A DNA stretch of 64,000 nucleotides from Xestospongia bergquistia (Eukaryota; Porifera; Demospongiae; Haplosclerida; Petrosiidae): assembly GCA_963965975.1 (NCBI GenBank), contig OZ014423.1, positions 2,542,001 to 2,606,000 of the forward strand. The letters are read 5' to 3'. The notes beneath the pieces are model-generated. The model did no database searches. It was not told the DNA's origin and saw only the letters and a program-made list of their open reading frames with translations. Positions 24,443-59,071 of this stretch are shown here, one piece after another. The translations under genes were made by a program, and so were the position numbers. Position 1 is the stretch's first letter, and each line of letters opens with the position of its first letter.

Positions 24443-24508
24443 GAGCTCTGGCAAGGAGCTTCAGTCATTCCAAGACTTAACTGTCTTTCACTCATTTAGA
24501 GAAACAAG

Positions 24509-26929
24509 ATGGTATCTCTACCAAGATGTATCCTACTCTCTGCAGTGGTCTGCATTCTCTCTAGTCATGTTCATTCTCAGGGTTATGTTTCTCCACCACC
24601 TATTGCTCCTAGGCCTAGGCCTACCCATCCACCAACTCCTGGTTACACCTCTTGTCCTCCAGGCTACCAGCAAGCATATGACAAAAAATGCAAAGATATC
24701 AATGAATGTAATGTCAATAATGGTGGCTGCAATCATACCTGTATTAACTATGATGGTAGTTACTACTGTACATGTAACCCTGGTTATCGTTTATCTAACA
24801 ATTACCACACCTGTATGGATATCAATGAGTGTGCCTGGGATAATGGGGGCTGTGATCAAAAGTGTATCAACAAACCAGGATCTTTCTCCTGTGCATGCTA
24901 TGAGGGTTTCAGGCTTCATCACTACCGCTGTAAGGACATAGATGAATGCAGCAAAGACCTTGACAATTGTGATCAGAGGTGTTTTAATACTAAAGGCAGT
25001 TTTCTGTGCTACTGTTACCCTGGCTATGAGCTTGGAGTTAATGGTGCTTCGTGTATTGATAAGAATGAATGTTGGGTTAGTAATGGAGGATGCTCTGATA
25101 TCTGTGTCAACTCTCAAGGAAACTACTCCTGTGAGTGTCCTCCTGGTTATACTCTTGATTTCAACCTGAGAACATGTATTGATGTTGATGAATGTAATCC
25201 TCGCTCCCCTTGTGAACAAAGGTTAGCAAGCAAATACATAATATACAACAAAATACATATGTAAATGAACCCATATCCTCATACAATCCAATCTATCCTC
25301 ATACAATCCAATTTTGTTCCTTTCCACAGGTGTGTCAACACTCCAGGCAGTTTTGAGTGTTATTGTTACCATGGATATGTACTTAACTCCACTGATGGTG
25401 TATCGTGTGACAATATAAATGAGTGTTTGTGGGTTAATGGAGGCTGTGATCAGATCTGCATTGACCAGGAACCTTCCTTTGAATGCAGATGCAGAAGTGG
25501 CTATACCCTGATCAATACTAAAGAATGCGAAGACATCAACGAATGCTTGACTAATAATGGCGGTTGTGATCAAATCTGTGTTAATACACCTGGTAGTTTT
25601 GTCTGCCAGTGTTGGGATGGCTATGAGGTACAAGCAGATAATAAAACATGTCGGGATACTAATGAATGTATGGATGATACAGATGACTGCGATCAAATAT
25701 GTCAGAATGTTGATGGAGGTTATGTGTGTTCTTGCATTAATGGTTACAGATTAGTGACCATCTACCGTCCTGCTTTGAATCATTTATCACATCGTTTCCA
25801 GGCTACCATATGTGTAGATATCAATGAATGCACTGAAGGAATAGCTCGCTGTAATCAACTATGCTGGAACACAATAGGTTCTTTTAATTGTAGTTGCTAT
25901 CCTGGTTACATTCTTGATAGTGACGGTATCACATGCATTGATTTTAATGAGTGTAACCAAACCCATTTCTGTGACCAAAAGTGTTTTAACCTCCCTGGAA
26001 GCTTTGAATGTGGGTGTGCTAAAGGTTACATCCTGGGTCCTGACCAACGTACATGCTGGGACATCAATGAATGTTTAGTTTCTAATGGAGGCTGTCAACA
26101 TATTTGCTATAATTACAATGGTTCATACAAGTGCAGTTGCTGGGAAGGATACACTCTCAGTTCTGATGGTTTTAGTTGCCAAGATATAAATGAATGTTAC
26201 CTTCAACTGGATTCGTGTCAACAAATTTGTGTCAATACTCGTGGCTCATTTGTTTGTGATTGTTATCCAGGTTTTACATTAAATGGAGATGGAAAAACCT
26301 GTAGAGATGTTGATGAATGTGCTACCAAATGGCACAACTGTGATCCAAAGAGAGAGAGATGTGTCAACAACAATGGAAGCTTCATTTGTGAATGTGTACC
26401 ACCATTCCGACAAAGTCCATTGGGATGCAGTAAGTTTCTTTTTTTTGTTGGCATTTGTAATTACATATTATCTTTTCTTACAGCAAAGCCACCAAAGGAC
26501 CCTCCTACACTCACAAGGCCACCAAAGCACCCTCCTACACCCACAAGGCCACCAAAGCACCCTCCTACACCCACAAGGCCACCAAAGCACCCTCCTACAT
26601 CCACAAGGCCACCAAAGCACCCTCCTACACCCACATTATGTGGCAGAGCTCGTTGTGATCACAAATGTTCTCTGGTCCATGGCAGTCCTGTCTGTTCTTG
26701 CCGATATGGATATATCCTCTGTAGTGATGGACGCACCTGTAAAGATCTAGATGAATGTCAAGTAATGAATGGGGGCTGTTATCATATATGTGTCAACACT
26801 CCTGGAGGGTACCATTGCTCATGTAATTCTGGTTACTGGTTGGACAGAGATGGACACACTTGTCACTCCTACTTTCCAATCCCTTTGCCTTATCCATTAA
26901 ACAGGCCACGAAATCATGGACCTACCTAG
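24509..26929 (+). CDS. Secreted multi-EGF protein, copy 4 (shortened tail)
   Basis: Exons 24509-25221 (713 bp), 25330-26429 (1100 bp) and 26484-26929 (446 bp) encode 752 residues with the layout of copy 1 and five Pro-rich decapeptides. A four-base insertion after the GGACCT codons gives ACC TAG, so the protein ends in GPT and lacks the last six residues (SNNPHYG-type tail) of copies 1 to 3. It is the most divergent intact copy (for example EVQADNK for ELQADNK and HLSHRF for QISHRF). AATAAA lies at 26979. Signal peptide ends VHSQ. Confidence 0.9.
26489..26638 (+). repeat. Coding minisatellite, 5 x 30 bp, EGF gene 4
   Basis: Five 30-bp units encoding PPKxPPT(L/P/S)TR decapeptides. Confidence 0.92.
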
Positions 26930-27195
26930 TAATAATCCTCATAATGGATAGTCTTAAATGGATCTCAAACATTGTAATAATAAAATTATCTCCTTAATTT
27001 ATCTTTTATGATATATGTAAATTGTGATGTTTTGATGTTTGATCAAAAATTTATTTCATGTTGTTAATGACCACTTTGTTGAGAGCTAGTTTGAATTAGT
27101 ACAGTATGTCAATTCAATAGTTTAATGTTGGCTTGGTTCCTTAGCTGAGTAGGAGTTGGTTCTTTAGCCACACAACAGTGTAGTCCAATGTTCTA

Positions 27196-42787: not shown

Positions 42788-44697
42788 TTAGTACAAATTG
42801 TATTTATTTGCAATATAATTAACATAACTAGAAAACAAGCCTTCATCAAAATTTGATCTATCATCTTGAATTACAATTCTAATATCTTTAAGACTCCAAT
42901 CATATTCAGAAGCTCCATCCCTTAAATTCTGTTGTTCACATTCTAGCATCAATTTCTTTGCAGACTCAATTACAGATGGCACTACATAAATTGATTTCAT
43001 ATTCTGTCCACTTCCTGAACTTTCAGCTGGTATAGCAATGTGCTTTGCACGGAGTTTACATGCTTCTTGTAAAGCTCTGTTTATAGACAAGGCTAATAAA
43101 TCAAAATGTTCCTTCTCAAAATAGCCATGAGCTGTGCTGACAGCATAACTAGGAATATAAATAATTTTCTTTGATTTGTATTTACCTTGAGCACCAGCTA
43201 TTACAATTTGACCTGGCTCAAAAGATTGCAACTCTGTTGTATCATCTGATTTGGAAGAATCATGAAGAGGTAATGCTTTTAAGATTGATGAAAATAGACT
43301 AACGTTACTTGTAACACTCTCCTTTTCCATGGGAACTACAACAGCATCAACTATTTCATCTGTTATTGATCCGATCTTTAAGGTAAGTAGGCATTGAAAA
43401 TTGCCAGGGAACTTTAGTTCTTGAATTCTTTCTGCTAATTTGTCAGAAATGGTTTTCTTAGCAAGTTGAAATTGGGAGGCATTAGTTGATATTAATTCTA
43501 TACTACTGTCTGGCTCACAGCATGCCACCACATAGCAGGCACTGAAGTTTTTATTGCATAAATTTATTAAGGACTGTATAGCTTGTTCTGGGTAATGTGG
43601 ACGAACTTCAAACTTCTCCTTTTGAAGATGAGGTAAGAGATTTTGATACTCAGCTAGAAATTGTTGTGTCCGAGCTTCCATTTCTTCCTTTGAATTTCCA
43701 CTAATCTTGACAAATTGATCAGATGGGTAATAGCTAACTCCTGGTATGTTACCTCTAGAAAGTTTTGGCATAATTCGAAGAACGCTGGGACTGAATACTG
43801 GTATAGTTGTGGAAAACGGTTCCTTAATTCTACGAAGATCACAAACTTCTTTCTTTAAGTCTGCAATCTCTTTCTCTTGTTCTGCTATTTTGTTCTTTAA
43901 CAATTCAATTTCTGTTTTATATTGAAGGTTTAACTCCTCCCACATTCTCTCCATCCTCTCTTGAAGATTTTGGAATTGAACTTCCATTGGTAATTTAAGA
44001 CATGCTTTTTCTTCGTGTTCCTTCATAATCCCTCTTGTCATCTTTTGACCACACCCATGACGACAATATACCTCCACATAGAGACATTCTCCCTCCTCTT
44101 TAACACTTATATGTCTCTCAAGATGACGTAGTTCACCGGTCCAGTCACACCCACAAGTTATTAGAGGACAATTAACTTGTAGATCAAAAATAAGCCTTTC
44201 TAATTCTTTATCTTAAAGAGTAATAAAACCTTCTTTACGACATTTGGGACAGGGTCGTCCTTTCTCTTGAATCTAAAAGCAAAACAATTATTAATCGCAT
44301 CTACACAATTTAGCAATTTTAAATGTTCAGATTAATGAGCAATATGGATGAGTTTCCTTATAGTATAAATTGTATAGGTTAAATGACACATATGTCAATT
44401 TAACACATATTAATATAGCAATCTATCCAAATCATATAGTACTATGACAAAGTAAAAATTTATTATGAAAATTATTAGACACAATTAATAGTAGATGTAA
44501 GGTACTTCAAATATAATATAATTATATAATAGACTTACTTCTTTAATGCAACTATGACATATTTTAACTCCACAACAAGAGACGAGATGAGGTGCTCTAA
44601 GTGTTAACAGACAAATTGGACATTCCAATGTTTTTGGTGGTGGTGTCACGAATGGACAGTCATAACCACCTATTGGAAGAGGAGAACAGGAGTCCAT
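42788..44697 (-). pseudogene. RING/TRAF-zf/coiled-coil/macro gene with in-frame stop
   Basis: Exon 1 (44697-44539) encodes the first part of a RING finger (CPICLLTLR, SCCGVKICHSC). Exon 2 (44272-42788) continues CPKCRKEGFITL and then has TAA at 44215-44213, where the sister gene at 44745 has Leu (TTG). Beyond the stop the frame stays open for 475 codons: TRAF-type zinc fingers, a coiled coil (QEKEIADLKKEVCDLR), a middle region and a degenerate macro-like domain (LTLKIGSITDEIVDAVVVP, KHIAIPAESSGSG) that lacks the asparagine and glycine loops. It may be a young pseudogene, an allele with a null mutation, or a gene that now starts at the ATG at 44077 and makes a RING-less protein of 429 residues. 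Sequence quality at the stop cannot be judged here. Confidence 0.75.
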
Positions 44698-44744
44698 TTT
44701 AGAGGCGTGACTGACGGATGTAATATTACCTAATTACAAGTTTT
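44698..44744. promoter_or_regulatory. 47-bp head-to-head gap between two RING-macro genes
   Basis: Only 47 bp lie between the ATGs of the two divergent sister genes. Both 5' UTRs and any core promoter must overlap here or within the coding exons. There is no TATA box; a 10-bp palindrome GTAATATTAC is present. Confidence 0.55.
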
Positions 44745-46418
44745 ATGGCTACGTCTCAACAGCAAGCAGTTCTTGAAGATACCTGTTCTTCTCTACCTTT
44801 AGGCGGTTTTGACTGTTTGTTTGTCGAAACTCCCCCTAAACTCTGGGAATGTCCAATCTGTCTGTTAACACTTAGATCACCTCATCTCCTCTCTTGTTGT
44901 GGAGTTAAAATATGTCAAAGTTGCATTCAAGGGGTAAGTCAGTTACAAATAAAGAAGTAATTGAATGTATCAAAGTAATTTGAAGTAATTGTTTTTCATT
45001 TTTAGATCGAAGAGAAAGGACGACCCTGTCCCAAATGTCGTAAAGAAGGTTTTATTACTCTTTTGGATAAAGAATTAGAAAGACTTATTTTTGATCTACA
45101 AGTTAATTGTCCTCTAATGACTTGTGGGTGTGATTGGACTGGTGAACTACGTCATCTTGAGAAACATCTAAGTGCTACAGAGGAGGGAGAATGTCTCTAT
45201 GTGGAGGTATATTGTCGTCATGGGTGTGGTCAAAAGATGACAAGGGGGATTATGAAGGAACACGAAGAAAAAGCATGTCTTAAATTACCAATGGAAGTTC
45301 AATTCCAAAATCTTCAAGAGAGGATGGAGAGAATGTGGGTGGAGCTACATCAAGAACACCAAAAAGAAATCGAATCATTAAAAAATAAGATTACAGAACA
45401 AGAGAAAGAGATTACCATCTTGAAAGATAAATTACATGCCAGCCAACCACAGGGTGAAAAGGTATGTATAACATATGATTCTCTCAAAGTTAGTGCATTA
45501 CAACTCATGCCAAAGTTACCAGGAGGTAATATTCCTGGTGTACATTATCATGCTACTAGAGGACGTGTTGAAATATATGGATGTTGTGAAAATGAAGTAC
45601 ATGCTCGTGGGTTTCGGTTTCAACTCGAATACCAGAAAGTCATCTTTGCTTACCAAGTCAAAGTCATTGATCTTATGCCACATAGTGATGATAAAGAACT
45701 TGCGTCTTTACTTAGCGAATTCAATCAGAAGTATGAATCAACTTATTTATTCAAAGTTAACAATAATGAAAAAGTGTGTATTAAAGTAATATCAATCGTC
45801 GCATCGCAATTTAATGAAGTTATAAAATCAATTCAGTTGAAGTTGACTGAGTTACAAGTTTGTAAAATGAAACTAAGTCCAAATTGCAAGCTAACACTGA
45901 AAATAGGTGATATTACTAAAGAAGATGTTGATGTAATACTCAGTTCAGCAAATATGCAGCTGCTTCATGATAACCATGGTGTGGCTGGAGCATTAAATAG
46001 AGCTAGCAATGGTGAGCTTCAGAAACTTGCTGAGAAGTATATAGCACAATACGGTCGTCTAGAGGTAGGAGACATTGCTGTTACAACAAGTGGTGGAGGG
46101 AATTTAAAATGTAAATACATTATTCATGTAGTCCCTCCCAGAAGCAGTGTGACTAATAGCAGTGATGCAGGTGATGTGCTCACAAGGAGTATCACAAAGG
46201 CTTTTGTCGAGGCTGAAAAGTGCAAAGCAGCCTCGATTGCTATTCCAGCTATTGGAGCAGGCTCTGTTTTATTTAAAACTGATACTGTTGCATCTGGGAT
46301 CATGAAAGCAGTTTCAACATTTGAGTATAATATTCTGAAAGATATTCGTATTGTTGTTTTTAACTCCCCTATATATACTACTTTTGCCAAACATTTCACT
46401 ACCACATCTAACATGTAG
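44745..46418 (+). CDS. RING/TRAF-zf/coiled-coil/macro-domain protein (predicted ADP-ribose-reading E3 ligase)
   Basis: Exons 44745-44933 and 45006-46418 join in frame to 533 residues. A RING finger lies at residues about 36-75 (CPICLLTLR...SCCGVKICQSC...CPKC). TRAF-type zinc fingers follow at about 95-150 (CPLMTCGCDW, YCRHGCGQKM), then a coiled coil to about 200, an unassigned middle region, and a C-terminal macro domain (LTLKIGDITKEDVDVILSSA, HGVAGALNRAS, IAIPAIGAGSVLF). The phosphate-binding loops GVAG and GAG are kept, so ADP-ribose binding is plausible; the usual NAAN motif is changed to SSAN. RING plus TRAF zinc fingers predict ubiquitin ligase activity in the cytosol. The first 200 residues are nearly identical to the divergent minus-strand sister, the rest is not. 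Confidence 0.88.
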
Positions 46419-46690
46419 TTCAACTATTATTAATCATTTTTGGTTTTTATTACAATTAATAAGTAAATATTATTGTCAAACAACAGGCCATGCATAAGAG
46501 TTTCAAAAAGGAAGCAATTGAATAACAATACACTCAAGGACAAATAATGTCATCAAATAATACATGTGATAATTAATGAATATCTATTGTTTATGCATTA
46601 CTGCTTGTTTATTTGTATGTATTACTTTAATGAGCTTGAAAGAGAAGATTCCTCATCAAGTGAACAGTGTCTGTGTAGACATACATATCA

Positions 46691-46858
46691 TAAATAACTA
46701 ACAAGGAATGTTTTCAATGTATCTGCAAATATGACATAGCTAGTCTCACTCTTCACAATACAAATGCATTTGAGCCTGGATGTAGTAAATTTGTAATTCA
46801 ATATAGCTTCTACCATTACATTAGCAGGTATGGTAGTTTTCATTATGTAAATACTATT
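46691..46858 (-). pseudogene. Inverted C-terminal fragment of a RING-macro gene
   Basis: On the minus strand the frame reads IMKTTIPANVMVEAIL, then YKFTTSRLKCICIV and SYVIFAD, matching the last 55 or so residues of the genes at 47297, 52592 and 57887. It is closest to the third one (MNTTIAADVMLEAIL). No start, RING or zinc finger remains. It is a relic of a copy in the opposite orientation. Confidence 0.82.
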
Positions 46859-47100
46859 ATATTCTTGTGCAAATAAATAATAAGTTAAGTTAATTTTGGT
46901 TATAGAAGTTTCAAGGAGCAAAATTATTTCATTCAAAATGAAAGTAAACACAATATTGTAATTGATTGTTATAGTCCTATGGAATTGACTGTTTATCAAA
47001 ATTTGTTTGAACAAGTAATGAATATTTTATTCTTAGACAAAGTAAGATTCTATAAACAGTTAATTTCACAGTACTTAGTAATCAAACAGTATTGTTTACT
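46840..47100. repeat. Dispersed block shared with 49580-49805 and 54875-55100
   Basis: Same-strand similarity over about 230 bp, including AACACAATATTGTAATTGAT, TATTTTATTCTTAGACAAAG and AGTAATCAAACAGTAT, with substitutions and small indels. Non-coding. It shows that the flank of the array was duplicated before the 5,295-bp units formed. Confidence 0.75.
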
Positions 47101-47217
47101 GTATCAACCGCAAGCCGCAAGGCCGATAGCATAGACTACGTAAGGTTACGTATCTATGCCGCGCCGATAGTCACAGCTCAATGCACAGTCACGGCCGCTC
47201 TTTTAATGAAGATCAAG

Positions 47218-47264
47218 GCGTAGCCAGCCCCTCCCTTAATTAAACGGGAGGGGCTGGCTTACGC
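47218..47264. repeat. GC-rich inverted repeat 33 bp upstream of RING-macro copy 1
   Basis: The arms GCGTAGCCAGCCCCTCCC (47218-47235) and its complement with one extra T (47246-47264) flank a 10-base loop. This strong hairpin sits between the GC-rich promoter stretch and the ATG. It could be a small foldback or MITE-type element, or a regulatory stem in the 5' UTR. Confidence 0.8.
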
Positions 47265-47296
47265 AATTCTTAAATAAACCGTTAACGACCTGGAGA

Positions 47297-48481
47297 ATGG
47301 CATCTGCTCCTTTCAGTCCTTTGCCTCGTAATTTTGTTGATCCTCCTCCTTCTCATTTTGAATGTCCTGTCTGTCTTCATACTTTAATTGAACCACATAT
47401 TCTCTCATGTTGTGGAGTCAAGATCTGTTACTCTTGTCTTACCAAGGTTCAAGAGACAACAAAAGCATGTCCACTGTGCCGTGAACTTGAGTTTACAAAC
47501 ATGTTGGAGAAACAACTTCATAGAGAGATTTTAAGTTTGAAGGTTTATTGTGTGAATGCAGCATTTGGTTGCAAATGGGTGAGTGAGATACGTGATTTAG
47601 AACAGCATAATAGTGTCTGTGAGTATGCATGCTCAGTTTGTCAATATGGTTGTGGTAAATCATATCCTCATCACTTACTGTCTGAACACGAGGAAACATG
47701 TCAAAATCGTCCTATAGAGACAATACTTAAGGAACTCCAAGAAGAAATAACCCTTCTCAAAACAAAAATAAGTACTCAGCAACAAGAGATTAATGGATTA
47801 AGAGAGAAAGTACAAGTTCTAGAAGATGTTTGCTTTCAGAGTCAAAGTTCTAGTAGTACATTCAGTGACCCTCCAGTGATGATACTTCCTGGTAATCGTA
47901 CGATATCTATCAAAAAAGGTGACATTTCTGAAGAGGATGTGGATGTCATAGTTGTTGGTACTAATAGTAAACTTCAACATGGTGGAGGTATTGCTGCTGT
48001 GTTAGATGCAGCTAGTGACTACAAGTTACAAAAATTCTCAGATGAATATGTCAGAAAACATGGTTTTGTTCCTATTGGTCATACAGCTGTCACAAAAGCT
48101 GGTGGACGTTTAAAGTGTAAAAATATAGTTCAGGCCATTGGTCCAATTGGTAGTGCAAAGTGTGTTCCAAATGATAAGATGTGTTTAGAAATGATTTTCC
48201 AAGCTGTTTCACAGAGCTTAGCAGAAGCTGAAAAGCTGAAGGCAACGTCAATTGCTTTTCCTAACTTTAGTAAGACTATTTTCATGATGAAAACTGCCAT
48301 AGCTGCTGATGTAATGCTGGAAGCTATATTGAGCTACAAATTTACTACATCCAGGCTCAAACACATTTGTATTGTTTTGTATGAAGAACAAGACTATGTC
48401 ATATTTGCAGATAAAATCATCTGTAGAAAAAACTTCACTCATCATTCAGTGGATAAAGAATTTATGCTGAAAACATTGTAA
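47297..48481 (+). CDS. RING/TRAF-zf/coiled-coil/macro protein, tandem copy 1
   Basis: A single exon encodes 394 residues. RING finger at 23-61 (C23, C26, C38/C39, C44, C47, C58, C61), TRAF-type zinc fingers at about 85-135, coiled coil at 137-177, macro domain from about 196 (ISIKKGDISEEDVDVIVVGTN, HGGGIAAVLDAAS, HTAVTKAGGRLKCKNIVQAIGP). The first glycine loop HGGGIAA and the Asn before it are present. The second phosphate loop is changed (AFPNFSKTIF instead of an IPxxGxGxxxF form), so binding may be weakened. It is predicted to be a cytosolic ubiquitin ligase that senses ADP-ribose. It differs from copy 2 at only about nine residues, four of them in the first 31. No intron, unlike the pair at 44.7 kb. 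Confidence 0.88.
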   Translation: MASAPFSPLPRNFVDPPPSHFECPVCLHTLIEPHILSCCGVKICYSCLTKVQETTKACPLCRELEFTNMLEKQLHREILSLKVYCVNAAFGCKWVSEIRDLEQHNSVCEYACSVCQYGCGKSYPHHLLSEHEETCQNRPIETILKELQEEITLLKTKISTQQQEINGLREKVQVLEDVCFQSQSSSSTFSDPPVMILPGNRTISIKKGDISEEDVDVIVVGTNSKLQHGGGIAAVLDAASDYKLQKFSDEYVRKHGFVPIGHTAVTKAGGRLKCKNIVQAIGPIGSAKCVPNDKMCLEMIFQAVSQSLAEAEKLKATSIAFPNFSKTIFMMKTAIAADVMLEAILSYKFTTSRLKHICIVLYEEQDYVIFADKIICRKNFTHHSVDKEFMLKTL

Positions 48482-48840
48482 ATAATAGGATCTTTTAATC
48501 TTGGCTGGTAGATAGTTTTTATGCATAAATATTATATATTATTTAATCTTGACTGGTTAAGGTCATTCAATTGTTCTCCAAACATTTATGTGCATAACCA
48601 GAAAATTTTCATATATATATATATATTATTGATAATGGTGGCTAGTAGCTATATAGGAATAAGTAAATTAAGTCTAATATTCAGACTCAAGATATAATAG
48701 CTGATTAACAATGACCAAGTTATCACTAGTTTAATGTATAAGTTATAATTGACTTAGCCACATTTGGAGGATATAGTGATATTACACGCATGAACATATA
48801 ATTATGTTCATGAGAAAATAGAATAATGTATTACAAGGTA

Positions 48841-49535
48841 AGTTTAATAACAAAATAAAGTTGTTGCAATTCCTCCTCCAAATATGGCTGGTACTACTAC
48901 CAATAATGACATCCCTGCAAATAAACCCATCCAAGAGATACCATGGCCATTATAAAGACAGGATAACAAGAATTATCATAATGATTATATTATAGCAAAA
49001 ATCACTTTGTTGTCTGATGTTTTGTGCATATGAGAAGTCAAAAATAAAAACACCTTTGAGGCAATGTGATGTGTGATATATGTCTACAAGCTTTCATTCA
49101 TGTTCATTTGAATAGGCTACCATTCTATATGCAGTTGTTCTATATTAGTTTATGGTTATACTATTCTGTATCAATGTCATTATAGGATTATGTTTTACTA
49201 TAATTATATTAAAGGCTAAATAGGGATCATGTTTTGGTTCTCAAACTAATTTGCATGTTGTTTTCATACCTTGTGCAACCAGATGCCAATCTTGCTCCAA
49301 ACAATAAAAATACTCCTCCAATGAATGCTGTTGTATAATCAAAACCCATAACACGACCCCATGATCCTGACAAGGTAGCAAAAATAGCTCCACCTAGTAA
49401 TGTTCCACTTGCATAGAAAACCTATATGGAAAATAATCAAATATATATTTTCTTTTGTCCACTAAGTGATTTTAGCAAATCCAATTATTCATACCTGCCA
49501 CTAAGCATCCATTCTATGACAAAACATATTCAATT
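48841..49535 (-). pseudogene. 3' fragment of YeeE/YedE transporter gene, copy A
   Basis: It matches the last three exons of the gene at 59808-62279. Exon 8 is intact (FYASGTLLGG to GARLASGCT). The final exon has lost its acceptor (TTTATAA|TGGCC, where the parent has TTTATAG|TGGCC). Of exon 7 only the end remains, with TGG changed to TAG (MDA-stop-WQ). No 5' exons are present, so it is dead. Confidence 0.88.
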
Positions 49536-50084
49536 TATTTTTTTCAATTCAGACAATTAGCAGTATACTGTTGAATGCATTCTTGTGTAAATAAACAAAT
49601 AAATTAATTAATATAAGGTTATACAGGTTGCATGGAGCAAATTTATTTCATCAACACAATATTGTAATTGATTATTATTGTCCAATGGAAATGACTATTT
49701 ATAAAAATTTAATGTTTGACCAGTATTGATTATTTTATTCTTAGACAAAGTAAGATGCTATAAACAGTTAATTCATAGTACATTAATTAGTAATCAAACA
49801 GTATATATATTGTGTTACTGTCAAATTACATCACCTAATTTGCTATTTACAACCAGCCATTTATAAATGTATATATATTGATTAAATCAACAAATCAGTT
49901 TTTACAATAAATTATTCTAGATTGTAAATGAATCAATATTGATTCATTTTATATTAATTTTAACTTTATATAGAGATAATCAACATTAATGTTATATAGA
50001 GTTAAAATTAATATTTGCTTTCTAAAAGCAACTATTTAAGAAAACAGCCAATTAAAATTTGTGCTGTGTATAGAAATATTCCTA

Positions 50085-50275
50085 TACAGTACATTTATTT
50101 GAATTGAGTGTTTTCTTAAACAGTTGATCATGTTCTTAGATTGAAAGCAATTGTTTACTTGAGATAATAAAGCAACTTCATTCCTACACAGTACATTTAT
50201 TTGTTTTCTTAAACAGTAGTTCCTATGCATGCAGCACATTTATTTTAATTGAGTGTTTTCTTAAGCAGTTTTTTT
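50085..50275. repeat. Degenerate short tandem repeat, about 3 copies
   Basis: Variants of CAGTACATTTATTTGAATTGAG followed by TGTTTTCTTAAACAG recur three times in 190 bp. Non-coding. Present again at 55380-55570 in unit B. Confidence 0.65.
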
Positions 50276-50823
50276 AAAAAGGAAACTTTTTCTTTACTTC
50301 ATAATTAATTTATATATATCATGTTAACTGTAAGTAAACCCAAATACAATCATATACCAAATGAGTTCTCACAAAAAGTTTTGAAGGATCACTGCAAATT
50401 CTGAGGGTACATGATATATTTAGTCAGTGTAGCATTATTATTAATAGTTTCTCAAGCACTGTTAAAAATCAAATGAACTTGGGTAATCAAAGTGTGTGTC
50501 TGTACAAATTGATATAGAAGTGATCAAATAGTGATTTTTTCTTACCTAGATTGTCAGTAGAAAATACAAAACCTCTGGAATTTCTCAAATTTTCAATTAA
50601 ATTGTCTTAATTTAAGTTAATGCATATCGCTTTTGTTTTTTTGTCACTGAAAACCCATAACGTTACTGATAATTATTTATCATTCAATGAAAAGTACAAA
50701 TTACCTTACTGTCCTGACAAGGTCTGAGTATATACATTATGTATAGAATAAAGAGTCATGCATATATTTCACAGCAAATTTTAGCCTCTTAACAACACTG
50801 TGCCTGCCTGACTGTTTATATGC

Positions 50824-51075
50824 ACTGTAAAAACTAAAAATGGATTGGTTGATTTAACCATTATTTAGTTATATAAGTTGCAATTGCAATCTTATTTTGT
50901 TGAAAAAGTAATCATGATACTGTTTTCATTACTAATGTACTACTGCTTATTTTATAACTACATATAACCATTAATTTCATAATATATTAGTAGTCAAAAT
51001 AGTGTTATGTTTACTTTTTGCATATGCATCCTGTATAACCATGTATTAGTTAAATCAACCAATCAATTTTTACAG

Positions 51076-51076
<1 letters not shown>
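50824..51076. mobile_element. MITE-like element with inverted ends, copy A
   Basis: The left end ACTGTAAAAA...ATTGGTTGATTTAAC and the right end GTTAAATCAACCAAT...TTTTTACAGT are inverted repeats of about 30 bp around some 250 bp of non-coding AT-rich sequence. A related single end lies near 49885. It contains no transposase and is followed by a (TA)n run (51077-51105), which may be its expanded TA target site. This looks like a non-autonomous DNA transposon. Confidence 0.6.
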
Positions 51077-51109
<33 letters not shown>

Positions 51110-51907
51110 AGGTATTTCTTAATTGGTCTTTGTGTTCTACCCAAGTTCCATTGTCCTTAAAAGTAACACAATTGCAAAGTTTAAAATTTAGGACTACTCA
51201 CAGATGATCTAAACCATAGTTAAAATAATTATTTTGAGCGAAGCAAAATTTTTTACTCGTAGAACAATACAGCAAATAGTGTTGGTGATTGTGATGATGG
51301 TGGTAGTGCCAAACATTAAAAATTTCTTTTTACCTTAATAACAAGATGCATCAAGTTATGTTAAGTTCAAACAAAACACTGACTTAGTAAAGTCTCTTTG
51401 ATCAAACAAGCTGTTTTCTTAATAATGACACTGTACTTTGTTTCTAAAATATCTGTCAACTTGAGTAAGCTTAAATGAAGACAAATAGCACATACACTTG
51501 GTTGGTGGTGATTGTTACATGATCAAAGTTGAGAGGACTATGTATAGTCTAGATCTCACATAGTCATCATAGTTTCATCACTTGTGAAAAGAAGAAGGTT
51601 TAGATACAAATTACTATAATTCATTAGATTGACTAAACTACACTTAACACTAGGATGATTTATGGCCATTTTGTCTAATCCCAATTTGTCTAACATAATG
51701 TACTGTTCTCCCATTTCAGCTAAAATTGAAATAATCCAGATTTCAAAGAGTTTTTAAATTAATACAAAATACAATAACTCAGTGGCTGTATGTCCTAAAA
51801 TGTTCAGGTAATGTATAGTCTCCTGCTTTCTATTTTCTTTTGTAGTTGAAGGTATGTTCTCAATTTTCGATACTTTCTCTTTCTTCTTTTTGGAAGCCCT
51901 CAAGCAG

Positions 51908-52260
51908 CTAATTATAGTAAACTGACTTCCATTGCTGCTCGTTCAAACTTGAAAAGGGTGACTGCTTCATAAATATTATGATGAGGTTTCTGGCAAGCTT
52001 CTTTATTTTGCTGTGCCATCCTTCAGCATTATTATCAGTGCAAAGACCCTCTTGAGTATAAACATTCCACATACGAATAGAGAAGCTGCCACCTAGCCAT
52101 GTAATTTTGAAGTGCTGATTGAAGGTATCTTTGTTGTCAAATACTGGAGAAATTTCTTTTAATCTACTCCAAGTTAACGTCACAAAAGTGGGAGGAACAA
52201 AGGCAATAGCTGTGACTTGGTGGATAAATGACTTAAAGTCATCTATAACCTAAGATTCAG
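51908..52260 (-). mobile_element. MULE-like transposase C-terminal remnant, copy A
   Basis: The minus-strand frame reads FIHQVTAIAFVPPTFV, then LWNVY-like MWNVYTQEGLCTDNNAEGWHSK. The TNN(A/x)EGWH motif is characteristic of the C-terminal part of MULE-type transposase-derived proteins. No DDE core or zinc finger is left, so it is an inactive fragment carried along in the tandem unit. Confidence 0.55.
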
Positions 52261-52477
52261 ATCCTTCTCTGAGTTCTCTTGATCTTCATTATTAAACTAA
52301 ACATGGTGTACTAATAGATTGATTGTTGTGTCAATCTGTATGATAAAAGTTAAAGGAACTTAGCCCCCCACATTGATGTAAATTGGGAGAGGTTGAAGCC
52401 TCCTTATTCCCCCCCCCCCTTTCCCACCCCAGTGCTGGGCATGCAATAGCCAATAAAATTACTTTTTTAATGGAGAG

Positions 52478-52522
52478 GCGTAGTCAGCCCCTCCTTTAAT
52501 AAACCGGAGGAGATGGCTACGC
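52478..52522. repeat. Inverted repeat upstream of RING-macro copy 2
   Basis: Arms 52478-52494 and 52506-52522 match at about 14 of 17 positions. Same element as at 47218 but imperfect; it ends 69 bp before the ATG. Confidence 0.75.
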
Positions 52523-52591
52523 AAGACTAGCATTCTTAGTACTGTAGTTATAAAACTATTTGACTCAATAAACGACATCCGGTCTTGGAGA

Positions 52592-53776
52592 ATGGTATCT
52601 GCTCCTTTCGGTCCTTTGCCTCGTAATTTTGTTGACTCTCCTCCTTCTCATTTTGAATGTCCTGTCTGTCTTCATACTTTAACTGAACCACATATTCTCT
52701 CATGTTGTGGAGTCAAGATCTGTTACTCTTGTCTTACCAAGGTTCAAGAGACAACAAAAGCATGTCCACTGTGCCGTGAACTTGAGTTTACAAACATGTT
52801 GGAGAAACAACTTCATAGAGAGATTTTAAGTTTGAAGGTTTATTGTGTGAATGCAGCATTTGGTTGCAAATGGGTGAGTGAGATACGTGATTTAGAACAG
52901 CATAATAGTGTCTGTGAGTATGCATGCTCAGTTTGTCAATATGGTTGTGGTAAATCATATCCTCTTCACTTACTGTGTGAACACGAGGAAACATGTCAAA
53001 ATCGTCCTATAGAGACAATACTTAAGGAACTCCAAGAAGAAATAACCCTTCTCAAAACAAAAATAACTACTCAGCAACAAGAGATTAATGGATTAAGAGA
53101 GAAAGTACAAGTTCTAGAAGATGTTTGCTTTCAGAGTCAAAGTTCTGGTAGTACATTCAGTGACCCTCCAGTGATGATACTTCCTGGTAATCATACGATA
53201 TCTATCAAAAAAGGTGACATTTCTGAAGAGGATGTGGATGTCATAGTTGTTGGTACTAATAGTAAACTTCAACATGGTGGAGGTATTGCTGCTGTGTTAG
53301 ATGCAGCTAGTGACTACAAGTTACAAAAATTCTCAGATGAATATGTCAGAAAACATGGTTTTGTTCCTATTGGTCATACAGCTGTCACAAAAGCTGGTGG
53401 ACGTTTAAAGTGTAAAAATATAGTTCAGGCCATTGGTCCAATTGGTAGTGCAAAGTGTGTTCCAAATGATAAGATGTGTTTAGAAATGATTTTCCAAGCT
53501 GTTTCACAGAGCTTAGCAGAAGCTGAAAAGCTGAAGGCAACATCAATTGCTTTTCCTAACTTTAGTAAGACTATTTTCATGATGAAAACTGCCATAGCTG
53601 CTGATGTAATGCTGGAAGCTATATTGAGCTACAAATTTACTACATCCAGGCTCAAACACATTTGTATTGTTTTGTATGAAGAACAAGACTATGTCATATT
53701 TGCAGATAAAATCATCTGTAGAAAAAACTTCACTCATCATTCAGTGGATAAAGAATTTATGCTGAAAACATTGTAA
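52592..53776 (+). CDS. RING/TRAF-zf/coiled-coil/macro protein, tandem copy 2
   Basis: A single exon of 394 residues with the layout of copy 1. It differs from it by A2V, S7G, P16S, I31T, two changes in the zinc-finger region (LHLLCEH for HHLLSEH), two in the linker and R to H before the macro domain. From the macro domain to the stop it is the same as copy 1 at protein level. It shares its first residues (MVSAPFGPLPRNFVDS) and its upstream flank with copy 3. This mosaic fits unequal crossing-over or gene conversion. Confidence 0.88.
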   Translation: MVSAPFGPLPRNFVDSPPSHFECPVCLHTLTEPHILSCCGVKICYSCLTKVQETTKACPLCRELEFTNMLEKQLHREILSLKVYCVNAAFGCKWVSEIRDLEQHNSVCEYACSVCQYGCGKSYPLHLLCEHEETCQNRPIETILKELQEEITLLKTKITTQQQEINGLREKVQVLEDVCFQSQSSGSTFSDPPVMILPGNHTISIKKGDISEEDVDVIVVGTNSKLQHGGGIAAVLDAASDYKLQKFSDEYVRKHGFVPIGHTAVTKAGGRLKCKNIVQAIGPIGSAKCVPNDKMCLEMIFQAVSQSLAEAEKLKATSIAFPNFSKTIFMMKTAIAADVMLEAILSYKFTTSRLKHICIVLYEEQDYVIFADKIICRKNFTHHSVDKEFMLKTL

Positions 53777-54135
53777 ATAATAGGATCTTTTAATCTTGGC
53801 TGGTAGATAGTTTTTATGCATAAATATTATATATTATTTAATCTTGACTGGTTAAGGTCATTCAATTGTTCTCCAAACATTTATGTGCATAACCAGAAAA
53901 TTTTCATATATATATATATATTATTGATAATGGTGGCTAGTAGCTATATAGGAATAAGTAAATTAAGTCTAATATTCAGACTCAAGATATAATAGCTGAT
54001 TAACAATGACCAAGTTATCACTAGTTTAATGTATAAGTTATAATTGACTTAGCCACATTTGGAGGATATAGTGATATTACACGCATGAACATATAATTAT
54101 GTTCATGAGAAAATAGAATAATGTATTACAAGGTA

Positions 54136-54830
54136 AGTTTAATAACAAAATAAAGTTGTTGCAATTCCTCCTCCAAATATGGCTGGTACTACTACCAATA
54201 ATGACATCCCTGCAAATAAACCCATCCAAGAGATACCATGGCCATTATAAAGACAGGATAACAAGAATTATCATAATGATTATATTATAGCAAAAATCAC
54301 TTTGTTGTCTGATGTTTTGTGCATATGAGAAGTCAAAAATAAAAACACCTTTGAGGCAATGTGATGTGTGATATATGTCTACAAGCTTTCATTCATGTTC
54401 ATTTGAATAGGCTACCATTCTATATGCAGTTGTTCTATATTAGTTTATGGTTATACTATTCTGTATCAATGTCATTATAGGATTATGTTTTACTATAATT
54501 ATATTAAAGGCTAAATAGGGATCATGTTTTGGTTCTCAAACTAATTTGCATGTTGTTTTCATACCTTGTGCAACCAGATGCCAATCTTGCTCCAAACAAT
54601 AAAAATACTCCTCCAATGAATGCTGTTGTATAATCAAAACCCATAACACGACCCCATGATCCTGACAAGGTAGCAAAAATAGCTCCACCTAGTAATGTTC
54701 CACTTGCATAGAAAACCTATATGGAAAATAATCAAATATATATTTTCTTTTGTCCACTAAGTGATTTTAGCAAATCCAATTATTCATACCTGCCACTAAG
54801 CATCCATTCTATGACAAAACATATTCAATT
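54136..54830 (-). pseudogene. 3' fragment of YeeE/YedE transporter gene, copy B
   Basis: Identical by eye to the fragment in unit A, with the same lost acceptor and the same TAG in exon 7. The damage therefore preceded the last duplication. Confidence 0.88.
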
Positions 54831-56118
54831 TATTTTTTTCAATTCAGACAATTAGCAGTATACTGTTGAATGCATTCTTGTGTAAATAAACAAATAAATT
54901 AATTAATATAAGGTTATACAGGTTGCATGGAGCAAATTTATTTCATCAACACAATATTGTAATTGATTATTATTGTCCAATGGAAATGACTATTTATAAA
55001 AATTTAATGTTTGACCAGTATTGATTATTTTATTCTTAGACAAAGTAAGATGCTATAAACAGTTAATTCATAGTACATTAATTAGTAATCAAACAGTATA
55101 TATATTGTGTTACTGTCAAATTACATCACCTAATTTGCTATTTACAACCAGCCATTTATAAATGTATATATATTGATTAAATCAACAAATCAGTTTTTAC
55201 AATAAATTATTCTAGATTGTAAATGAATCAATATTGATTCATTTTATATTAATTTTAACTTTATATAGAGATAATCAACATTAATGTTATATAGAGTTAA
55301 AATTAATATTTGCTTTCTAAAAGCAACTATTTAAGAAAACAGCCAATTAAAATTTGTGCTGTGTATAGAAATATTCCTATACAGTACATTTATTTGAATT
55401 GAGTGTTTTCTTAAACAGTTGATCATGTTCTTAGATTGAAAGCAATTGTTTACTTGAGATAATAAAGCAACTTCATTCCTACACAGTACATTTATTTGTT
55501 TTCTTAAACAGTAGTTCCTATGCATGCAGCACATTTATTTTAATTGAGTGTTTTCTTAAGCAGTTTTTTTAAAAAGGAAACTTTTTCTTTACTTCATAAT
55601 TAATTTATATATATCATGTTAACTGTAAGTAAACCCAAATACAATCATATACCAAATGAGTTCTCACAAAAAGTTTTGAAGGATCACTGCAAATTCTGAG
55701 GGTACATGATATATTTAGTCAGTGTAGCATTATTATTAATAGTTTCTCAAGCACTGTTAAAAATCAAATGAACTTGGGTAATCAAAGTGTGTGTCTGTAC
55801 AAATTGATATAGAAGTGATCAAATAGTGATTTTTTCTTACCTAGATTGTCAGTAGAAAATACAAAACCTCTGGAATTTCTCAAATTTTCAATTAAATTGT
55901 CTTAATTTAAGTTAATGCATATCGCTTTTGTTTTTTTGTCACTGAAAACCCATAACGTTACTGATAATTATTTATCATTCAATGAAAAGTACAAATTACC
56001 TTACTGTCCTGACAAGGTCTGAGTATATACATTATGTATAGAATAAAGAGTCATGCATATATTTCACAGCAAATTTTAGCCTCTTAACAACACTGTGCCT
56101 GCCTGACTGTTTATATGC

Positions 56119-56370
56119 ACTGTAAAAACTAAAAATGGATTGGTTGATTTAACCATTATTTAGTTATATAAGTTGCAATTGCAATCTTATTTTGTTGAAA
56201 AAGTAATCATGATACTGTTTTCATTACTAATGTACTACTGCTTATTTTATAACTACATATAACCATTAATTTCATAATATATTAGTAGTCAAAATAGTGT
56301 TATGTTTACTTTTTGCATATGCATCCTGTATAACCATGTATTAGTTAAATCAACCAATCAATTTTTACAG

Positions 56371-56371
<1 letters not shown>
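56119..56371. mobile_element. MITE-like element with inverted ends, copy B
   Basis: Same element as at 50824, carried along in unit B, followed by the same (TA)n run. Confidence 0.6.
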
Positions 56372-56404
<33 letters not shown>

Positions 56405-57202
56405 AGGTATTTCTTAATTGGTCTTTGTGTTCTACCCAAGTTCCATTGTCCTTAAAAGTAACACAATTGCAAAGTTTAAAATTTAGGACTACTCACAGAT
56501 GATCTAAACCATAGTTAAAATAATTATTTGGAGCGAAGCAAAATTTTTTACTCGTAGAACAATACAGCAAATAGTGTTGGTGATTGTGATGATGGTGGTA
56601 GTGCCAAACATTAAAAATTTCTTTTTACCTTAATAACAAGATGCATCAAGTTATGTTAAGTTCAAACAAAACACTGACTTAGTAAAGTCTCTTTGATCAA
56701 ACAAGCTGTTTTCTTAATAATGACACTGTACTTTGTTTCTAAAATATCTGTCAACTTGAGTAAGCTTAAATGAAGACAAATAGCACATACACTTGGTTGG
56801 TGGTGATTGTTACATGATCAAAGTTGAGAGGACTATGTATAGTCTAGATCTCACATAGTCATCATAGTTTCATCACTTGTGAAAAGAAGAAGGTTTAGAT
56901 ACAAATTACTATAATTCATTAGATTGACTAAACTACACTTAACACTAGGATGATTTATGGCCATTTTGTCTAATCCCAATTTGTCTAACATAATGTACTG
57001 TTCTCCCATTTCAGCTAAAATTGAAATAATCCAGATTTCAAAGAGTTTTTAAATTAATACAAAATACAATAACTCAGTGGCTGTATGTCCTAAAATGTTC
57101 AGGTAATGTATAGTCTCCTGCTTTCTATTTTCTTTTGTAGTTGAAGGTATGTTCTCAATTTTCGATACTTTCTCTTTCTTCTTTTTGGAAGCCCTCAAGC
57201 AG

Positions 57203-57555
57203 CTAATTATAGTAAACTGACTTCCATTGCTGCTCGTTCAAACTTGAAAAGGGTGACTGCTTCATAAATATTATGATGAGGTTTCTGGCAAGCTTCTTTA
57301 TTTTGCTGTGCCATCCTTCAGCATTATTATCAGTGCAAAGACCCTCTTGAGTATAAACATTCCACATACGAATAGAGAAGCTGCCACCTAGCCATGTAAT
57401 TTTGAAGTGCTGATTGAAGGTATCTTTGTTGTCAAATACTGGAGAAATTTCTTTTAATCTACTCCAAGTTAACGTCACAAAAGTGGGAGGAACAAAGGCA
57501 ATAGCTGTGACTTGGTGGATAAATGACTTAAAGTCATCTATAACCTAAGATTCAG
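57203..57555 (-). mobile_element. MULE-like transposase C-terminal remnant, copy B
   Basis: Same fragment as at 51908, with the TDNNAEGWHSK motif; inactive. Confidence 0.55.
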
Positions 57556-57772
57556 ATCCTTCTCTGAGTTCTCTTGATCTTCATTATTAAACTAAACATG
57601 GTGTACTAATAGATTGATTGTTGTGTCAATCTGTATGATAAAAGTTAAAGGAACTTAGCCCCCCACATTGATGTAAATTGGGAGAGGTTGAAGCCTCCTT
57701 ATTCCCCCCCCCCCTTTCCCACCCCAGTGCTGGGCATGCAATAGCCAATAAAATTACTTTTTTAATGGAGAG

Positions 57773-57817
57773 GCGTAGTCAGCCCCTCCTTTAATAAACC
57801 GGAGGAGATGGCTACGC
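57773..57817. repeat. Inverted repeat upstream of RING-macro copy 3
   Basis: Identical to the element at 52478, ending 69 bp before the ATG of copy 3. Confidence 0.75.
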
Positions 57818-57886
57818 AAGACTAGCATTCTTAGTACTGTAGTTATAAAACTATTTGACTCAATAAACGACATCCGGTCTTGGAGA

Positions 57887-59071
57887 ATGGTATCTGCTCC
57901 TTTCGGTCCTTTGCCTCGTAATTTTGTTGACTCTCCTCCTTCTCATTTTGAATGTCCTGTCTGTCTTCATACTTTAACTGAACCACATATTCTCTCATGT
58001 TGTGGAGTCAAGATCTGTTACTCTTGTCTTACCAAGGTTCAAGAGACAACAAAAGCATGTCCACTGTGCCGTGAACTTGAGTTTACAAACATGTTGGAGA
58101 AACAACTTCATAGAGAGATTTTAAGTTTGAAGGTTTATTGTGTGAATGCAGCATTTGGTTGCAAATGGGTGAGTGAGATACGTGATTTAGAACAGCATAA
58201 TAGTGTCTGTGAGTATGCGTGCTCAGTTTGTCAATATGGTTGTGGTAAATCATATCCTCATCACTTACTGTCTGAACACGAGGAAACATGTCAAAATCGT
58301 CCTATAGAGACAATACTTAAGGAACTCCAAGAAGAAATAACCCTTCTCAAAACAAAAATAACTACTCAGCAACAAGAGATTAATGGATTAAGAAAGAAAG
58401 TACAAGTTCTAGAAGATGTTTGCTTTCAGAGTCAAAGTTCTGGTAGTACATTCAGTAACCCTCCAGTGATGATACTTCCTGGTAATCGTACGATATCTAT
58501 CAAAAAAGGTGACATTTCTGAAGAGGATGTGGATGTCATAGTTGTTGGTACTAATAGTAAACTTCAACATGGTGGAGGTATTGCTGCTGTGTTAGATGCA
58601 GCTAGTGATTACAAGCTACAAAAATTCTCAGATGAATATGTCAGAAAACATGGTTTTGTTCCTATTGGTCATACAGCTGTCACAAAAGCTGGTGGACGTT
58701 TAAAGTGTAAAAATATAGTTCAGGCCATTGGTCCAATTGGTAGTGCAAACAGTATTCCAAGTGATAAGATGTGTTTAGAAATGATTTTCCAAGCTGTTTC
58801 AAAGAGCTTAGCAGAAGCTGAAAAGCTGAAGGCAACGTCAATTGCTTTTCCTAACTTTAGTAAGAGTGTTTTCATAATGAATACTACGATAGCTGCTGAT
58901 GTAATGCTGGAAGCTATATTGAGCTACAAATTTACTACATCCAGGCTCAAACGCATTTGTATTGTTTTATGTGAAGAACAAGACTATGTCATATTTGCAG
59001 ATAAAATCATCTGTAGAAAAACCTTCACTCATCATTCAGTGGATAAAGAATTTATGCTGAAAACATTGTAA
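57887..59071 (+). CDS. RING/TRAF-zf/coiled-coil/macro protein, tandem copy 3
   Basis: A single exon of 394 residues. The first 31 residues follow copy 2 (MVSAPFG, NFVDS, HTLTEP), the zinc-finger region follows copy 1 (HHLLSEH), and the C-terminal third has private changes (SANSIPSDKM for SAKCVPNDKM, SKSVFIMNTTIAADV for SKTIFMMKTAIAADV, RLKRICIVLCEE). It is the most diverged of the three and its 3' flank departs from units A and B soon after the stop. Predicted function is as copy 1. Confidence 0.88.
   Translation: MVSAPFGPLPRNFVDSPPSHFECPVCLHTLTEPHILSCCGVKICYSCLTKVQETTKACPLCRELEFTNMLEKQLHREILSLKVYCVNAAFGCKWVSEIRDLEQHNSVCEYACSVCQYGCGKSYPHHLLSEHEETCQNRPIETILKELQEEITLLKTKITTQQQEINGLRKKVQVLEDVCFQSQSSGSTFSNPPVMILPGNRTISIKKGDISEEDVDVIVVGTNSKLQHGGGIAAVLDAASDYKLQKFSDEYVRKHGFVPIGHTAVTKAGGRLKCKNIVQAIGPIGSANSIPSDKMCLEMIFQAVSKSLAEAEKLKATSIAFPNFSKSVFIMNTTIAADVMLEAILSYKFTTSRLKRICIVLCEEQDYVIFADKIICRKTFTHHSVDKEFMLKTL

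What the first reader, a model, noticed from the sequence alone, without database searches (positions are those of the whole stretch)
42788..59071. A gene family fusing RING, TRAF-type zinc fingers, coiled coil and a macro domain
Seen: five neighbouring loci read RING, CX-rich TRAF zinc fingers, coiled coil and a C-terminal macro fold in one polypeptide. Known: RING plus TRAF zinc fingers mark ubiquitin ligases, and macro domains bind ADP-ribose; vertebrates link the two activities through separate partners such as DTX3L with PARP9. Inference: these are one-chain ligases that recognise ADP-ribosylated targets, possibly in antiviral or antibacterial defence or stress. Rapid duplication and decay of the cluster fits an immune-type role. 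I am not aware of a described system with this exact order, but cannot search.
Basis: partly seen in the sequence, partly recalled or inferred. Interest (0 to 1): 0.82.

Follow-up and report, generated by a model that had tools for sequence, protein, structure and literature searches.

The report
Ligase heads fused to ADP-ribose readers
In this animal genome (probably a sponge), a protein module of the kind that reads the ADP-ribose tag has been joined, gene by gene, to different signalling ends, among them ubiquitin-ligase-like ones, so that parts which vertebrates carry on separate partner proteins sit here in single proteins.

Summary
G3, G4 and G5 are single exons of 394 codons; G2 is spliced across its RING; G1 carries a stop just after the RING, and its macro part falls below Pfam's cut-off. 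Heads are RING plus TRAF-type zinc fingers (best solved match TRAF6), without MATH; tails are macro domains nearest PARP14/PARP9. The RING histidine ligand reads Val in all five, and G3-G5 lack the glycines of macro loop 2, so ligase activity and ADP-ribose binding are unproven.

The larger finding lies outside the coordinates. One macro lineage (92/95 against PARP14-like macros, 17 rows) sits on RING-TRAF heads, kinases, a TRIM head, and DTX3L-like RING-DTC ends. From 10 kb left of the window lies a macro-RING-DTC gene, which would be a one-chain counterpart of human PARP9:DTX3L; a PARP14-like gene lies 51 kb right. Two gene pairs share near-identical heads on tails about 50% identical in DNA.

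Best reading: modular ADP-ribose readers with interchangeable outputs. Nearest precedents: PARP9:DTX3L; a Dictyostelium U-box PARP. Immune use is inferred. Structure prediction failed, and the linker domain stays unidentified.

The parts
42788..44697 (-). G1: broken RING-TRAFzf-coil-linker-macro gene; exon 1 44697-44539, intron 44538-44273, exon 2 44272-42788 with in-frame TAA at 44213-44215
   Evidence: Sequence and splice signals; Pfam zf-TRAF 1.4e-4, Macro 0.01 (both below cut-off); one TAA inside the match
44745..44933 (+). G2 exon 1: all RING Cys but the last pair
   Evidence: RING in spliced letters E 1.4e-4, below cut-off
45006..46418 (+). G2 exon 2: last RING Cys pair, TRAF-type Zn fingers (two by eye), coiled coil, ~125-aa linker domain, macro domain
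   Evidence: Pfam Macro 2.2e-20, zf-TRAF 3.8e-4 (below cut-off); PDB PARP14 5.5e-25 and PARP9 1.2e-18
45945..46406 (+). macro domain of G2; keeps the adenine Asp, distal-ribose Asn and a Gly in loop 2 (GAGS); loop 1 altered (DNHG)
46720..46859 (-). decayed fragment of a sixth copy (3' end of a G3-type macro), 85% identical
   Evidence: blastn
47297..48481 (+). G3: single-exon RING-TRAFzf-coil-macro, 394 aa, no linker domain
47291..52585 (.). tandem unit 1 (5295 bases)
52586..57880 (.). tandem unit 2 (5295 bases); 12 of 5295 bases differ from unit 1
52592..53776 (+). G4: single-exon RING-TRAFzf-coil-macro
   Evidence: Pfam Macro 1.9e-17
57887..59071 (+). G5: single-exon RING-TRAFzf-coil-macro; head about 57938-58306, macro about 58487-59011
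   Evidence: Pfam Macro 1.4e-16; TRAF6 1.1e-14; PARP14 2.9e-21

Best explanation
G2-G5 are adaptor/ligase proteins in which a TRAF-like head (RING, TRAF Zn fingers, coiled coil) carries a C-terminal macrodomain reader from a DTX3L/PARP9-like stock. Proposed working: a PARP14-like transferase tags a target with ADP-ribose; the macro tail (with or without the linker domain) docks on the tag; the coiled coil clusters heads; the RING/Zn-finger head recruits an E2 or signalling partners and ubiquitylates the target or its surroundings. In the same chromosome region the same macro lineage feeds other outputs: Deltex RING-DTC (ubiquitin on or near ADP-ribose), TRIM, and kinases. Shown by sequence: architecture, kinship of tails, cluster, head/tail mosaic. 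Inferred: binding, ligase activity, defence role.
For: Single open frames through head and macro; macro matches; TRAF6-type head. The nearest genome relatives of the G2 linker+macro and of the G5 macro, outside the window family, are Deltex-cluster genes at C13:2525-2530 kb (E 1.1e-49 and 1.2e-47). A tree of 17 macros puts 10 reader macros on one side of a branch, 92/95, against 7 PARP14-like macros. Of 11 DTC (Deltex) matches in the genome, 9 lie at C13:2512107-2528745 and 2, probably one gene, on C7. Three Deltex gene models with GT-AG introns placed by eye read without internal stops; the one with macro + RING + DTC has Pfam DTC 3.8e-58 and Macro 6.7e-27, its DTC nearest DTX3L, 2.2e-48. PARP14-like macro-WWE-PARP exons 51 kb to the right. 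Heads near-identical while tails diverge: G1/G2 Zn-finger part dS 0.09, macro dS 1.8; kinase pair head dS 0.07, linker dS 3.0, macro saturated. Conversely, L012 and L011 share a close macro (88%, dS 0.06) under unrelated front ends.
Against: RING His ligand replaced by Val in all five heads; by eye, the Deltex RINGs of the three neighbouring genes also read Gln at that place, and the one scanned in a full model scores just under the Pfam RING cut-off (25.1 of 27.3 bits). G3-G5 macro loop 2 reads FSKTIF/FSKSVF in place of STGVF-like; G1 lacks nearly all ligand residues. No structure model, transcripts, binding or ligase data. The linker domain matches nothing in Pfam or PDB profiles, nor the PARP14-like genes by hhalign, and is only 16-34% identical to G2's in the other seven members. 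G3-G5 show no purifying selection (dN/dS 0.80-1.19 on few changes), so they could be decaying, although older macro pairs are constrained (G5/G2 0.31, G1/G2 0.43, dS near saturation), which tells against tails simply being free to diverge.
Confidence: 0.5

Rival explanations
1. The RING has lost ligase function; the proteins are TRAF-like scaffolds that cluster signalling partners on ADP-ribosylated targets, without ubiquitin transfer by themselves.
For: His ligand replaced (V) in all five heads; 16 of the 27 distinct unsplit RINGs of this type found by a pattern in the fetched loci also lack His there. The extra Cys before the site (SCCG, DCCG) is also present in 10 of the 11 His forms, so it is not a made-to-measure replacement ligand. 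TRAF-type heads oligomerise (general knowledge).
Against: The non-His form recurs across a large family; all other RING Cys are kept; the extra Cys could still serve as a ligand (untested).
Confidence: 0.25
2. The macro of G3-G5 no longer binds ADP-ribose; these three are recent copies evolving neutrally or serve as decoys or protein-contact modules.
For: Loop 2 glycine lost; dN/dS near 1 among the copies; neighbouring G1 and a sixth fragment are dead.
Against: Asp, Asn and GGG of the other ligand sites kept; frames intact over 394 codons in three copies; G5/G2 macro dN/dS 0.31.
Confidence: 0.25
3. Ordinary intracellular stress or DNA-damage readers with no immune role; expansion is drift in a duplication-prone chromosome region.
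For: No expression or infection data; the tandem unit also carries transposon-like debris (by eye).
Against: Company of TRIM, Deltex and PARP14-like genes; human macro-PARPs and DTX3L form an interferon-stimulated cluster (PMC11080071, passage). In close pairs, more replacement relative to silent change in macro tails than in heads, 47:13 against 67:65, p 2.8e-4 on pooled, rounded counts from chosen pairs.
Confidence: 0.25
4. Assembly artefact: the three near-identical units are one gene duplicated by mis-joined haplotypes.
For: Units 1 and 2 differ at only 12 of 5295 bases.
Against: The third copy carries 24-27 CDS differences; G1, G2 and the rest of the cluster do not depend on the array.
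Confidence: 0.1

Closest known systems
Human PARP9:DTX3L (with PARP14), chromosome 3q21 cluster
   Same: Macrodomain reader coupled to a ubiquitin ligase; window macros nearest PARP14/PARP9; DTX3L-type DTC genes and PARP14-like exons in the same region. The 3q21 cluster, its interferon induction and the RRM/KH-like domains of DTX3L are from passages of PMC11080071.
   Different: In vertebrates reader and ligase are two proteins; here one chain. Window genes have no DTC or PARP match. PARP9 is reported only from jawed vertebrates (PMC10221186, passage), so direct orthology of the pair is unlikely.
Dictyostelium clade 3 PARP with N-terminal U-box
   Same: Ubiquitin-ligase-type domain on a member of the macro-PARP clade (PMC4245714, section 12 read).
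   Different: U-box, not RING plus TRAF Zn fingers, and it is a PARP; that its chain also has the macrodomain is implied there, not spelled out.
TRAF6 and other TRAFs
   Same: RING plus TRAF-type Zn fingers and a coiled-coil-like stretch.
   Different: No MATH domain in the window genes; macro in its place; RING His ligand changed.
RNF114/RNF138/RNF166
   Same: RING ligases with Zn fingers that read an ADP-ribose-ubiquitin mark (PMC12687431, passages).
   Different: Reading is by Zn fingers and UIM, not by a macrodomain.
TRIM proteins
   Same: RING-B-box-coil head on two cluster genes (L012, L069).
   Different: C-terminal macro and/or second RING-DTC. In PMC3503706 the word 'macro' occurs once, in a place not among the 12 of 19 passages shown, so this paper was not excluded as prior art.

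Membership tests
Macrodomain (PF01661) | full-length domain match over the curated cut-off | tested here: met
   G2-G5, 4 of 5: 61-73 bits against 22; G1 not met, 16.2 bits
ADP-ribose-binding macrodomain | adenine Asp, distal-ribose Asn, Gly-containing loops 1 and 2 | tested here: inconclusive
   G2 keeps Asp, Asn and loop 2; G3-G5 keep Asp, Asn and loop 1 but not loop 2; G1 almost none. Roles of the residues are recalled
RING finger E3 | C3HC4 ligands | tested here: inconclusive
   His position is Val in all five; an extra Cys precedes it; Pfam RING below gathering score
RING finger E3 | ubiquitin transfer | not testable with these tools
   needs biochemistry
TRAF family | C-terminal MATH (TRAF-C) domain | tested here: not met
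   No MATH in the Pfam scan of the window genes at E 0.1; found in L056 at E 4.2e-25 by the same library
TRAF family | RING + TRAF Zn fingers | tested here: met
   G5 to TRAF6 1.1e-14 over residues 18-133; Pfam zf-TRAF in G1 and G2 only, below cut-off
Deltex family | DTC domain after the RING | tested here: not met
   No DTC match inside the window. Met by the three neighbouring genes at C13:2518396-2531788
macro-PARP (PARP9/14/15) | PARP catalytic domain | tested here: not met
   No PARP match inside the window
KH-like domain of DTX3L/PARP9/PARP14 | KH fold in the linker | tested here: inconclusive
   No Pfam, PDB-profile or hhalign support; no fold model could be made. 'KH-like' is a reading by eye only

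The most novel reading that the evidence does not exclude
An animal lineage built a modular ADP-ribose signalling set in which one family of macrodomain tails is plugged onto interchangeable output heads (RING-TRAF, TRIM, kinase, Deltex) by recombination at the coiled coil, with heads kept uniform between neighbours while tails differ, as in sensor families under attack; and a one-chain macro-RING-DTC protein shows the PARP9-DTX3L partnership as a single polypeptide in an early animal branch.
Probability: 0.3. Interest if true: 0.88.

Novelty: new variant of a known kind. Interest (0 to 1): 0.72.

Why it matters
ADP-ribose readers and ubiquitin ligases meet in vertebrate antiviral signalling through separate proteins. 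One-chain natural fusions would give direct tests of what the partnership does (does reading the tag steer ubiquitin?), and the one-chain macro-Deltex gene next door bears on how the PARP9-DTX3L pair arose. Heads shared across unlike tails would be a measurable case of domain swapping inside a signalling family.

Tried and rejected
Linker domain as KH, RRM or TRADD-N: looked for by PDB profile search, hhalign against two sets of PARP14-like proteins, Pfam on 8 members up to E 10: no sensible match; left unidentified. An RRM at the N-terminus of the macro-Deltex gene was guessed by eye; Pfam gave nothing, so not claimed.

Positive selection on the G4/G5 macro: 10 of the 11 changed codons at 285-340 are replacements, but overall 18:5 is about what neutral change would give, so not claimed. 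Two independent head acquisitions (G1/G2 against G3-G5): head tree unresolved (open fork under 97/92, 27 rows).

Pooled test heads against tails: rounded counts from three head pairs (G1/G2 Zn-finger part, L013/L015 kinase, L069/L012 TRIM) and two macro pairs (L012/L011, G4/G5), chosen as close pairs. Left out: the linker pair L069/L011 (dN/dS 0.40), the coil parts, the G3/G4 and G3/G5 pairs, and the old pairs G1/G2 and G5/G2, whose macros show constraint (0.43 and 0.31). Head dS in G1/G2 is from the Zn-finger part; exon 1 is 83% identical in DNA.

Macro tree: 17 macros taken by me; of the fetched ones G4, L002, L005, L007, L008 and the fragment L038 were left out, and macro matches (43, a lower bound) that were not fetched are missing.

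Literature: ten searches of one open-access library (one search was for the species). Among the rows listed I saw no title or abstract start on a RING-TRAF-macro, TRIM-macro, kinase-macro or macro-DTC protein; lists were cut (20 of 29 papers, 20 of 258, 15 of 66, 10 of 30, 10 of 32). Subscription papers are not held, and the Aravind review on ADP-ribosylation (PMC6126934, recalled as relevant) is not held. Papers: PMC4245714 passages and section 12 whole; PMC12687431, PMC3503706, PMC8195603, PMC13224862, PMC10221186, PMC11080071 passages only.


Full report
What was checked. The window is C13:2542001-2606000 of a 146.46-Mb assembly in 21 contigs.

The five loci. G3, G4 and G5 (+, 47297-48481, 52592-53776, 57887-59071) are single exons of 394 codons that run from RING through TRAF-type Zn fingers (two by eye) and a coiled-coil-like stretch into a macro domain. 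G2 (+, 44745-44933 and 45006-46418, 533 aa) has the same order plus a linker domain of about 125 residues; its intron leaves the last RING Cys pair in exon 2, so both exons must be joined to make the domain. G1 (minus) is its head-to-head neighbour and is broken: an in-frame TAA follows the RING, and its macro has lost nearly every ligand residue and scores below the Pfam cut-off. A sixth fragment lies at 46720-46859.

Domain identity. Macro: Pfam 2.2e-20 (G2) and 1.7e-17 to 1.4e-16 (G3-G5); best solved relatives are PARP14 chains (3vfq, two stretches for G2) and PARP9; NCBIfam's best names for G2 and G5 are ADP-ribose-binding protein families, well below their equivalog cut-offs. Head: TRAF6 at 1.1e-14, no MATH domain. 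In the alignment to TRAF6, CGHRFC reads CGVKIC: the histidine ligand is Val. Of 27 distinct unsplit RINGs of this type that a pattern found in the fetched loci (G3-G5 included; the intron-split G1 and G2, both Val, not), 11 have His there and 16 do not. So the loss is common in this genome and not a mark of these loci. An extra Cys stands before the site in 26 of the 27, His forms included, so it cannot be taken as a replacement ligand without a test. Macro ligand sites: G2 keeps Asp, Asn and a Gly-containing loop 2, loop 1 altered; G3-G5 keep Asp, Asn and GGG but loop 2 reads FSKTIF or FSKSVF.

Where the tail comes from. Searching the whole genome with G2 exon 2 and with G5, the nearest tails outside the window family lie at C13:2525-2530 kb, 11 to 17 kb left of the window; a linker without macro follows at 2519 kb. 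Reading these loci showed TRIM heads (RING, B-box in two stretches) on L012 and L069 and, 3' of each of the three tails, RING-DTC exons. With GT-AG introns placed by eye the three genes read through without stops: C13:2531788-2528211 (minus), 920 aa, unassigned N-terminus-linker-macro-RING-DTC; C13:2527034-2524242 (minus), TRIM-macro-RING-DTC; C13:2520827-2518396 (minus), TRIM-linker-RING-DTC. Pfam on the first: DTC 3.8e-58, Macro 6.7e-27, RING 25.1 bits against 27.3. Its DTC is nearest human DTX3L (2.2e-48) before DTX2 and DTX1. By eye these Deltex RINGs too lack the His. Of 11 DTC matches in the genome, 9 lie in this cluster (three genes and one fragment) and 2, probably one gene, on C7. PARP14-like exons (two macro stretches and WWE in one frame, a partial macro and a PARP match in others) lie at C13:2652-2655 kb, 51 kb right of G5. 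In human, the macro-PARPs and DTX3L also form one cluster, on 3q21 (PMC11080071, passage). Whether the likeness is inherited or repeated cannot be told from one genome.

Other outputs. At C13:1.47-1.48 Mb three genes carry a protein kinase head (Pfam about 1e-38), a coil, a linker that aligns with G2's at 16-20% identity and a macro tail. PDB matches of the L013 kinase include CTR1, TNNI3K, IRAK4 and B-raf, with a 678-residue EGFR entry ranking first; 'TKL-like' is a recalled label. L023 (C13:2.797 Mb) has linker-macro with no head seen in the 0.8 kb read upstream. A tree of 17 macros puts the 10 readers on one side of a branch (92/95; 88% of 200 bootstrap trees) and the 7 PARP14-like macros on the other; the G1 row is a very long branch, so its place is unsure, and the root is only a midpoint. 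The RING-TRAF heads belong to a large family: the head matches on C13 are the five in the window, and outside C13 no macro match lies within 100 kb of a listed head match; these lists are lower bounds. In a tree of 27 heads, G2 and G3-G5 group with C7 TRAF-like heads (97/92).

Mosaic genes. After G1's stop, G1 and G2 share 92-100% of bases per 30-codon window from codon 21 to about 110 of exon 2, then fall to 56% by codons 126-155 and 40% by 141-170 (Zn-finger dS 0.09, macro dS 1.8); their exon 1 is 83% identical. The kinase pair L013/L015 falls from 91% to 43% around codon 395 (kinase dS 0.07, linker dS 3.0). The TRIM head of L069 and L012 is 89% identical in protein up to about codon 390, followed by linker in one and macro in the other; L011 shares its linker with L069 (85%) and its macro with L012 (88%, dS 0.06) under another front end. 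The breaks lie at or next to the coil (placed by eye). This fits gene conversion of heads or swapping of tails; which one is open. In close pairs, macro tails carry more replacement per silent change than heads (47:13 against 67:65, p 2.8e-4; pooled, rounded, pairs chosen after the fact). Older macro pairs are constrained (dN/dS 0.31 and 0.43), so recent relaxation is a fair reading and selection for change is not shown.

Mechanism proposed. PARP14-like transferase writes ADP-ribose; macro tail reads it; coil clusters heads; the head passes on a ubiquitin, scaffold or kinase signal. Shown by sequence: the parts, their order, their kinship. Inferred: every biochemical step. Against: RING His loss, loop 2 loss in G3-G5, broken G1, no expression evidence, and no fold model, since the structure service was busy, interrupted both jobs and was then switched off.

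Known or new. The nearest systems are the PARP9:DTX3L complex (two chains) and the Dictyostelium U-box PARP (PMC4245714, section 12 read; macrodomain in the same chain implied, not spelled out). PARP9 is described as limited to jawed vertebrates (PMC10221186, passage). In nine topical searches of the held open-access library no listed row described RING-TRAF-macro, TRIM-macro, kinase-macro or macro-DTC chains; lists were cut and the library lacks most subscription papers, so prior description is not excluded. I rate it a new variant of a known kind.

Noticed in passing
G000:C13:2518396-2531788 (L069, L012, L011): Three Deltex (RING-DTC) genes in a row without internal stops, one with linker-macro, one with TRIM-macro, one with TRIM-linker; remains of a fourth at C13:2512107-2514066.
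   Followed up: yes
window 47291-57880: Tandem units 1 and 2 differ at 11 of 1185 coding bases (9 of 11 changed codons are replacements) but at only 1 of 4110 other bases (p 6.5e-7): gene conversion, selection or an assembly effect.
   Followed up: partly
G000 C1, C5, C7, C12, C15: A large RING-TRAF-Zn-finger family; 16 of 27 distinct RINGs found by a pattern lack the His ligand and 26 of 27 have an extra Cys before the CG.
   Followed up: partly
G000:C5:8153790-8154299 and 8167300-8167827: Two PARP catalytic matches in frames of 731 and 898 aa lie amid the C5 array of RING-TRAF heads at about 8.06-8.18 Mb.
   Followed up: no
window 8220-27000: Tandem array of about 5.4-kb genes with EGF-like repeats (frames starting at 8220, 13597, 19005, 24500, a degenerate one at 22596); EGF_CA E 6.4e-11 on one 72-aa stretch.
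   Followed up: no
window 49227-49421 and 54522-54716 (minus): Fragment that reads like a YeeE/YedE-type transporter, by eye only; in tandem units 1 and 2.
   Followed up: no
window 51908-52249 and 57203-57544 (minus): Fragment that reads like a transposase piece (MULE-like), by eye only, in tandem units 1 and 2.
   Followed up: no
L013, L014, L015 (C13:1.47-1.48 Mb): Kinase-coil-linker-macro genes; L013 and L015 share a 96% identical head on tails about 40% identical in protein.
   Followed up: partly
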